From: Methanomassiliicoccus sp. | GTDB taxonomy: Archaea > Thermoplasmatota > Thermoplasmata > Methanomassiliicoccales > Methanomassiliicoccaceae | Assembly: GCA_016109435.1 (NCBI GenBank) | Contig: JAEILR010000003.1 | Coordinates: forward strand, 62,001-126,000 | Direction: 5' to 3' | DNA: 64,000 nucleotides | Shown here: one piece after another, positions 4,443 through 10,896 of the stretch | Layout: every line of letters starts with the position of its first letter | How positions within the stretch are numbered: the stretch's first letter is position 1 | The notes under the pieces: model-generated | What the model was told of the DNA's origin: nothing | The model's database searches: none | Seen by the model: only the letters and a program-made list of their open reading frames with translations | Translations under genes and position numbers: made by a program

Positions 4443-5000
4443 TCATCTCCACATCATTTGGTCCAGGGTACCGGGGTCGGGGGCAGGAGGGGAAGGGCAC
4501 AGGCCATGGGCCACGGCGCCGTTGGTCCCGCCTGGCCGGGCCGAGGGGCCGCCGCATTTTCTGCCGTCGGTGTCGATCCTCAGCCGGGTCTCGATGGTGC
4601 TCCTCAGCTGGGCAAGGATGGCGTCATACTCCTCCGCGGTGGAGGGCTTGATGATGTACCCGATGATATCCATGCTGCGGGCCCTGACCTCATCCTCCCG
4701 GTTCAGGGAGCCGGTCAGGACGACCACGGGGACGGATCTCAGGGGGCCTGATTTCAAGAACGAGAGAACATCGTACCCATGCACCTTGGGCAGGTTCAGG
4801 TCGAGGATGACCAGGTCCGGGGCGGACGCCTGGCAACCGCCATATCCTCCGGCAAGTATGCTGAGGGCCTGTGATCCGTCCCCGGCCACGATAATGCTCA
4901 GGTCCAGGTCGAGGTCCCTTAACATGCACGAGAACAGGTGCGCATCTGCCGGATTGTCCTCCACAAGAAGGATCCGGAAAGGCCTTCCCATATCATTCAT
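4443..5000 (-). CDS. Stand-alone response regulator (receiver domain) with Pro-rich tail
   Basis: The receiver has acidic residues Glu14-Asp15 (ILLVEDN), phospho-acceptor Asp67 (LVILDLNLPKVHG), Thr in VVLTGS, and Lys in YIIKPS. The residues after about 140 form a Gly/Pro-rich tail without a recognised domain. I chose the ATG at 5000 because AGGGAC lies about 4 nt before it and the start overlaps the stop of the giant kinase gene by 8 nt; a longer frame opening at 5177 would be read from inside the kinase HATPase domain. An ATG at 4991 is the alternative. Overlap with the kinase and the next receiver 3 nt downstream indicate a single transcript and a shared signalling pathway. Confidence 0.88.
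   Translation of the reverse strand: MNDMGRPFRILLVEDNPADAHLFSCMLRDLDLDLSIIVAGDGSQALSILAGGYGGCQASAPDLVILDLNLPKVHGYDVLSFLKSGPLRSVPVVVLTGSLNREDEVRARSMDIIGYIIKPSTAEEYDAILAQLRSTIETRLRIDTDGRKCGGPSARPGGTNGAVAHGLCPSPPAPDPGTLDQMMWR

Positions 5001-10896: not shown

What the first reader, a model, noticed from the sequence alone, without database searches (positions are those of the whole stretch)
4993..10896. Archaeal multi-domain sensor with a pseudo-Ser/Thr kinase head
The protein kinase domain lacks the catalytic Asp (HRD reads HGG) and the DFG glycine (DFI), yet the ATPase, TPR, GAF, PAS and histidine kinase parts look intact. It therefore probably uses the kinase fold as a binding or regulatory module. 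The architecture is known mainly from cyanobacteria and myxobacteria, so its presence in an archaeon suggests inter-domain transfer.
Basis: partly seen in the sequence, partly recalled or inferred. Interest (0 to 1): 0.6.

Follow-up and report, generated by a model that had tools for sequence, protein, structure and literature searches.

The report
Pseudokinase sensor shared by methanogens, bacteria
A methanogenic archaeon carries a giant sensor protein whose front end is a disabled protein kinase; the same disabled front end is found in distantly related archaea and anaerobic bacteria, but each host group has attached its own kind of output kinase to it.

Summary
Confirmed: window 4993-10896 (-) encodes a 1967-aa kinase-AAA_16-TPR-like-GAF-PAS-PAS-HisKA-HATPase protein in a methanogen (mcrA in all 7 genus members). 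The kinase head has HGG for HRD and DFI for DFG. DFI alone is weak evidence, because active-type relatives often read DFS. Lys39, Asn137 and Asp150 remain, and AlphaFold gives a full kinase fold (pLDDT 93).

HGG, DF[I/V] and the alphaC Arg/Lys are shared by seven proteins from two archaeal phyla, Desulfobacterota and Clostridia. So it is an old, selected trait, not decay. The head's dN/dS (about 0.27) matches the other domains.

Inter-domain transfer is supported, but only for the core (1-1456). After GAF identity collapses: bacteria carry HisKA_2 tails, archaea PAS-HisKA tails. The window's tail branches among histidine kinases of its own order. Two intact receiver proteins follow directly.

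Across 77 surveyed family heads the HRD Asp is lost often outside cyanobacteria (26/47 vs 1/30; at least 9 changes). Best reading: a non-catalytic, possibly nucleotide-binding head regulates a locally acquired histidine kinase. New variant of the HstK "dual kinase" kind.

The parts
4993..10896 (-). Whole ORF, 1967 aa: pseudokinase-AAA_16-TPR-like-GAF-PAS-PAS-HisKA-HATPase sensor
10108..10869 (-). Protein-kinase-fold head (residues 10-263)
   Evidence: Pfam PF00069; AlphaFold pLDDT 92.9; Foldseek best match PknB 5u94, TM 0.80/0.88
10780..10782 (-). Lys39, the VAIK-type lysine, kept (60 of 60 heads)
10726..10728 (-). Arg57 at the alphaC-Glu position (R/K in all 7 HGG heads; E 43, Q 10 in 53 others)
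10501..10509 (-). HGG in place of HRD (residues 130-132)
10441..10449 (-). DFI in place of DFG (residues 150-152); metal-binding Asp kept
9427..9993 (-). AAA_16 ATPase (residues 302-490), Walker A GLSGIGKT and Walker B LFIDD intact; most conserved domain of the family
6997..8616 (-). Helical TPR-like region (residues 761-1300), no Pfam call in this protein
6538..6957 (-). GAF domain (1314-1453), end of the shared core
6457..6528 (-). Junction (about residues 1457-1480) after which homology to the bacterial relatives ends
6091..6453 (-). PAS1 (1482-1602); 55-57% identical to the PAS of the receiver-PAS-HK gene next to two bacterial HGG genes
5707..6057 (-). PAS2 (about 1614-1730); from residue 1579 on the tail is 59% identical to a stand-alone HK of genus member G001
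5464..5664 (-). HisKA dimerisation/phospho-acceptor domain (1745-1811), ASHDLQEP H-box
5008..5334 (-). HATPase_c (1855-1963), N and G boxes present
4443..5000 (-). RR1, single-domain receiver protein; ATG at 5000 overlaps the sensor's stop by 8 nt
4005..4439 (-). RR2, second single-domain receiver protein, 3 nt downstream of RR1; the pair is also present in G006

Best explanation
This is a sensor histidine kinase with a non-catalytic kinase-fold head. Shown: the head has lost the HRD Asp, alphaC Glu and DFG Gly but keeps the predicted fold, VAIK Lys, DFG Asp and catalytic-loop Asn; the same loss is conserved in archaea and bacteria; the shared core ends after GAF and is joined to a tail of the archaeon's own order; two receiver proteins are encoded directly downstream. 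Inferred: the head no longer phosphorylates Ser/Thr. It serves as a docking or nucleotide-gated regulatory lobe on the AAA ATPase, which with the TPR-like region acts as an ATP-driven, ligand- or partner-responsive switch. That state, together with the GAF and PAS signals, sets the autokinase activity of the HisKA-HATPase tail, which passes phosphate to RR1 and RR2; these act by protein-protein contacts, as is usual for archaeal stand-alone receivers. Evolutionarily the pseudokinase-AAA-TPR-GAF core behaves as a transferable sensory cassette, moved between anaerobic bacteria and methanogens and joined to a histidine kinase of the host's own kind.
For: HGG, DF[I/V] and R/K57 in 7/7; no subfamily-specific conserved acid in the catalytic loop; full kinase fold predicted; dN/dS of head 0.186/0.677, like TPR 0.208/0.666 and tail 0.221/0.728; core 54-84% identical domain by domain across the seven (short linker aside) while archaeal and bacterial tails are only 20-30% identical; HisKA_2 in bacteria versus HisKA in archaea; tail nested among HKs of the same order, sister to one from G040 100/96, and 59% to a stand-alone HK of G001; receiver genes directly downstream in G000, G006 and G1018. 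Cyanobacterial SpkE, which lacks this Asp and several other conserved residues, showed no kinase activity (PMC2176072). Archaeal response regulators are often stand-alone receivers thought to act by protein contacts (PMC5847659).
Against: No biochemistry. Some kinases lacking a canonical motif are active. Lys39, Asp150 and Asn137 are kept, which would fit residual activity as well as nucleotide binding. Cognate pairing of sensor and receivers is inferred from gene order only. Direction of transfer is not settled by the rooted tree (p-AU 0.354).
Confidence: 0.65

Rival explanations
1. The head is an atypical but active Ser/Thr kinase that uses another residue as base, so the protein is a true dual kinase like HstK.
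For: Lys39, Asn137 and Asp150 kept in all seven; invariant Asp156 and Glu59 are present in the head.
Against: The HRD Asp, alphaC Glu and DFG Gly are all replaced and the glycine loop is absent; no conserved acid within the catalytic loop (131-149); Glu59 is two residues off the alphaC-Glu position and is common in Asp-bearing relatives; Asp156 lies in the activation segment.
Confidence: 0.12
2. The head is only a structural cap for the AAA domain: it neither binds nucleotide nor takes part in signalling, and persists because removing it would unfold the core.
For: AlphaC Glu to Arg/Lys reverses a pocket charge; some other family members that lost the HRD Asp have lost Asn137 or Asp150 too.
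Against: Lys39 and Asp150 are invariant in the HGG clade despite 54-70% identity in the head, which a pure cap would not need.
Confidence: 0.2
3. The archaeal occurrence is a binning artefact: a bacterial contig in an archaeal MAG.
For: The genome has 5.7% estimated contamination; the core is 60-67% identical to bacterial proteins.
Against: The ORF lies on a 321-kb contig; its tail branches among HKs of the same archaeal order; a second genus member has the same protein and receiver pair; a member of another archaeal phylum has the core on a 522-kb contig.
Confidence: 0.03

Closest known systems
HstK / cyanobacterial family cbSTKIII 'dual protein kinases' (PMC2176072, PMC1262709)
   Same: Same order of kinase head, GAF and C-terminal histidine kinase; cyanobacterial homologues found here are about 30% identical over 1000 residues of the AAA-TPR part
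   Different: cbSTKIII members are described as 'KD' kinases with the catalytic Asp; here it is Gly, the alphaC Glu is Arg, and the tail is an archaeal PAS-PAS-HisKA
Fungal Mak2/Mak3 (S. pombe) and CHK1 (C. albicans) histidine kinases (PMC5383687, PMC9069115)
   Same: Similar architecture by published domain maps: Ser/Thr-kinase-like head (with AAA-16 in CHK1), GAF, histidine kinase; in CHK1 removing kinase+AAA impairs function
   Different: Eukaryotic, with a fused receiver; sequences not compared here
   Same: Same HGG-type core, 60-73% identical
   Different: Bacterial copies end in HisKA_2-HATPase, and those of G296, G1140 and G1195 are followed by receiver-bearing genes; G1018 has a different PAS-HisKA tail
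PknB / StkP Hanks-type kinases
   Same: Fold (TM 0.8) and VAIK Lys, DFG Asp
   Different: HRD Asp, alphaC Glu and DFG Gly present there, absent here

Membership tests
Dual (Ser/Thr + His) kinase family, HstK / cbSTKIII | N-terminal protein-kinase fold | tested here: met
Dual (Ser/Thr + His) kinase family, HstK / cbSTKIII | At least one GAF between head and C-terminal HisKA + HATPase | tested here: met
Dual (Ser/Thr + His) kinase family, HstK / cbSTKIII | 'KD' catalytic loop (Asp present), stated for all cbSTKIII in PMC2176072 | tested here: not met
   HGG
Active Hanks-type Ser/Thr kinase | VAIK Lys and DFG Asp | tested here: met
   K39, D150
Active Hanks-type Ser/Thr kinase | alphaC Glu | tested here: not met
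   Arg57
Active Hanks-type Ser/Thr kinase | HRD Asp | tested here: not met
   Gly132
Pseudokinase | Kinase fold kept with catalytic motif residues lost, conserved under purifying selection | tested here: met
Pseudokinase | No measurable phosphotransfer | not testable with these tools
   needs purified protein
HisKA histidine kinase | H-box His, N and G boxes intact | tested here: met
   ASHDLQEP, NLVNNGIKF, DNGIGI, GTGIGL; Pfam
Two-component system with cognate receiver | Receiver genes adjacent, with intact Asp/Thr-Ser/Lys | tested here: met
   RR1 and RR2 sequences and Pfam; phosphotransfer not testable here
PASTA-type PknB/StkP | PASTA repeats | tested here: not met
   No PASTA in the Pfam scan

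The most novel reading that the evidence does not exclude
A pseudokinase-AAA-TPR-GAF cassette acts as a mobile sensory module: it has moved among anaerobic bacteria and at least two archaeal phyla, keeps its dead kinase head wherever it goes, and is re-wired to different histidine kinase classes in different hosts. It is one case of a recurrent, undescribed conversion of dual-kinase heads into pseudokinases outside cyanobacteria.
Probability: 0.5. Interest if true: 0.62.

Novelty: new variant of a known kind. Interest (0 to 1): 0.48.

Why it matters
By sequence family such heads are called Ser/Thr kinases. This work indicates that in a methanogen and its bacterial relatives the head is conserved but most likely non-catalytic, and that loss of the catalytic Asp has happened repeatedly in the family. 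It offers a prokaryotic pseudokinase fused to the output it should regulate, so what a dead kinase domain does can be tested on one polypeptide. It also gives a clear case of inter-domain transfer where a sensory core was kept while the output kinase was exchanged.

Tried and rejected
Literature searches for 'pseudokinase' with histidine kinases gave no paper describing inactive heads in this family; the library is incomplete. Contamination as an explanation was rejected (second genus member, order-typical tail, long contigs). Random decay was rejected (motif shared by 7 proteins, dN/dS like other domains). A compensating Asp in the catalytic loop was looked for and not found. GC and GC3 of the core do not stand out from the tail or from several neighbouring genes, so composition gives no transfer signal. 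The AU test could not fix the direction of transfer. Asp-loss frequencies come from top hits to this query and are therefore biased towards its relatives.

Full report
What is there. The ORF at 4993-10896 (-) is intact, 1967 aa. Pfam finds a protein kinase head (10-263), AAA_16 (302-490), GAF (1314-1453), two PAS, HisKA (1745-1811) and HATPase_c (1855-1963). The region 760-1300 is TPR-like but not called by Pfam in this protein. The host is a methanogen: mcrA is found in all seven genomes of its genus. The ORF lies on a 321-kb contig.

The head. AlphaFold on a 60-sequence family alignment gives a complete kinase fold, mean pLDDT 92.9, best solved match PknB. By alignment to StkP and to 59 family heads, the HRD Asp is Gly132, the alphaC Glu is Arg57 and the DFG Gly is Ile152; Lys39, Asn137 and Asp150 are kept. 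The DFG change alone would not matter much, because 17 of 53 other family heads have Ser and only 27 have Gly. The Asp and Glu losses are the informative ones: every one of the 53 others has Glu or Gln at 57, while all seven close relatives have Arg or Lys. No conserved acid appears in the catalytic loop to replace the lost Asp.

Close relatives. Genome searches found six further proteins with the same head: G006 (same genus, 73%), G1018 (same phylum as Methanoperedens, 73%), Desulfobacterales GWB2_56_26/G061 and G296, and Clostridia-class genomes G1140 and G1195 (G1195 has one in-frame TAG). All read HGG and DF[I/V]. In the window's own phylum only the window genome was positive among 390 sampled genomes (G006, found, is not among the rows shown). 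In the phylum of Methanoperedens 2 of 295 were positive, one of them HGG. The wider family is far commoner in bacteria: cyanobacteria 37 of 117, the class of G061 33 of 258, the Clostridia class 15 of 196.

Selection. Between the window and G006 the head has dN 0.186, dS 0.677; TPR 0.208/0.666; tail 0.221/0.728. The dead head is held as tightly as the working domains. dS values are rough in these GC-rich genes.

Mosaic. Domain by domain, core identity among the seven is 54-84% (a 25-residue linker aside); after the GAF, archaeal-bacterial identity falls to 20-30%. Bacterial members end in HisKA_2-HATPase, archaeal ones in PAS-HisKA-HATPase. The window tail branches with HKs of its own order (sister from G040, 100/96) and is 59% identical, from residue 1579 on, to a stand-alone HK of genus member G001; the G1018 tail falls elsewhere, near a cyanobacterial HK. 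PAS1 is 55-57% identical to the PAS in the receiver-PAS-HK gene beside two bacterial HGG genes. It could therefore have come with the core, but this PAS type is common and this was not tested by a tree.

Transfer and direction. A core tree with a mixture model puts the three archaea in one clade (100/99) nested in the bacteria (98/95). With a simpler model and fewer outgroups support drops (74/97) and a single bacterial clade is not rejected (p-AU 0.354). Bacteria-to-archaea is therefore favoured mainly by distribution. The window and G1018, from different archaeal phyla, are about as similar in the core as the window and G006 from one genus, which suggests transfer among archaea too.

Operon. 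RR1 (4443-5000) overlaps the sensor's stop by 8 nt and RR2 (4005-4439) follows; both are single receiver domains with intact motifs. G006 has the same pair (with an assembly gap in RR1) and G1018 a receiver gene overlapping its stop. Archaea commonly use such stand-alone receivers (PMC5847659).

Family-wide pattern. In the surveyed loci the HRD Asp is absent in 17 of 24 heads from the Desulfobacterota class, 6 of 20 from Clostridia, 2 of 2 from the phylum of Methanoperedens and 1 of 30 from cyanobacteria (together with one own-genus head, 77 in all), with at least 9 changes on an AAA-domain tree that excludes the trait columns. This agrees with PMC2176072, which calls all cyanobacterial members 'KD' kinases. 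The counts come from best hits to this query and are biased. No paper describing inactive heads in this family was found in the held library.

Mechanism. Best supported: a non-catalytic, possibly nucleotide-binding head on an AAA/TPR switch that gates a histidine kinase with GAF/PAS inputs, signalling to RR1/RR2. Sequence, conservation, mosaic structure and gene order are shown; loss of activity, nucleotide binding, gating and phosphotransfer to RR1/RR2 are inferred.

Noticed in passing
14116-16566 (-): One 816-aa ORF matches KdpC (27-215) followed by KdpA (240-811): a KdpC-KdpA fusion next to kdpB (16569-18695).
   Followed up: no
12106-14112 (-): KdpD-like protein of 668 aa that matches only the first 649 of 895 positions of KdpD and the 'KdpD non-kinase' model (both below cut-off), so the histidine kinase part appears to be missing.
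   Followed up: no
L173:6100-11724 (G1195, Clostridia class): The HGG-type gene is split by a single in-frame TAG in the Walker A region, where relatives have Gln; pseudogene, error or recoding not resolved.
   Followed up: partly
L117:6715-7071 (G061): A second, partial HGG-family N-terminus beside a receiver-bearing gene at a contig end, interrupted by an N run.
   Followed up: no
3681-3965 (+): Small conserved protein (MGVIYAVFNHSKKEF...) downstream of the operon, with a look-alike near the related HK in G001 (L206:12427-12717); no function assigned.
   Followed up: no
L150 / L174 (G799): A second, distant dual-kinase-like protein in an archaeon, HRN in place of HRD, beside genes that look (by eye, unsearched) like corrinoid/methyltransferase genes.
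   Followed up: partly
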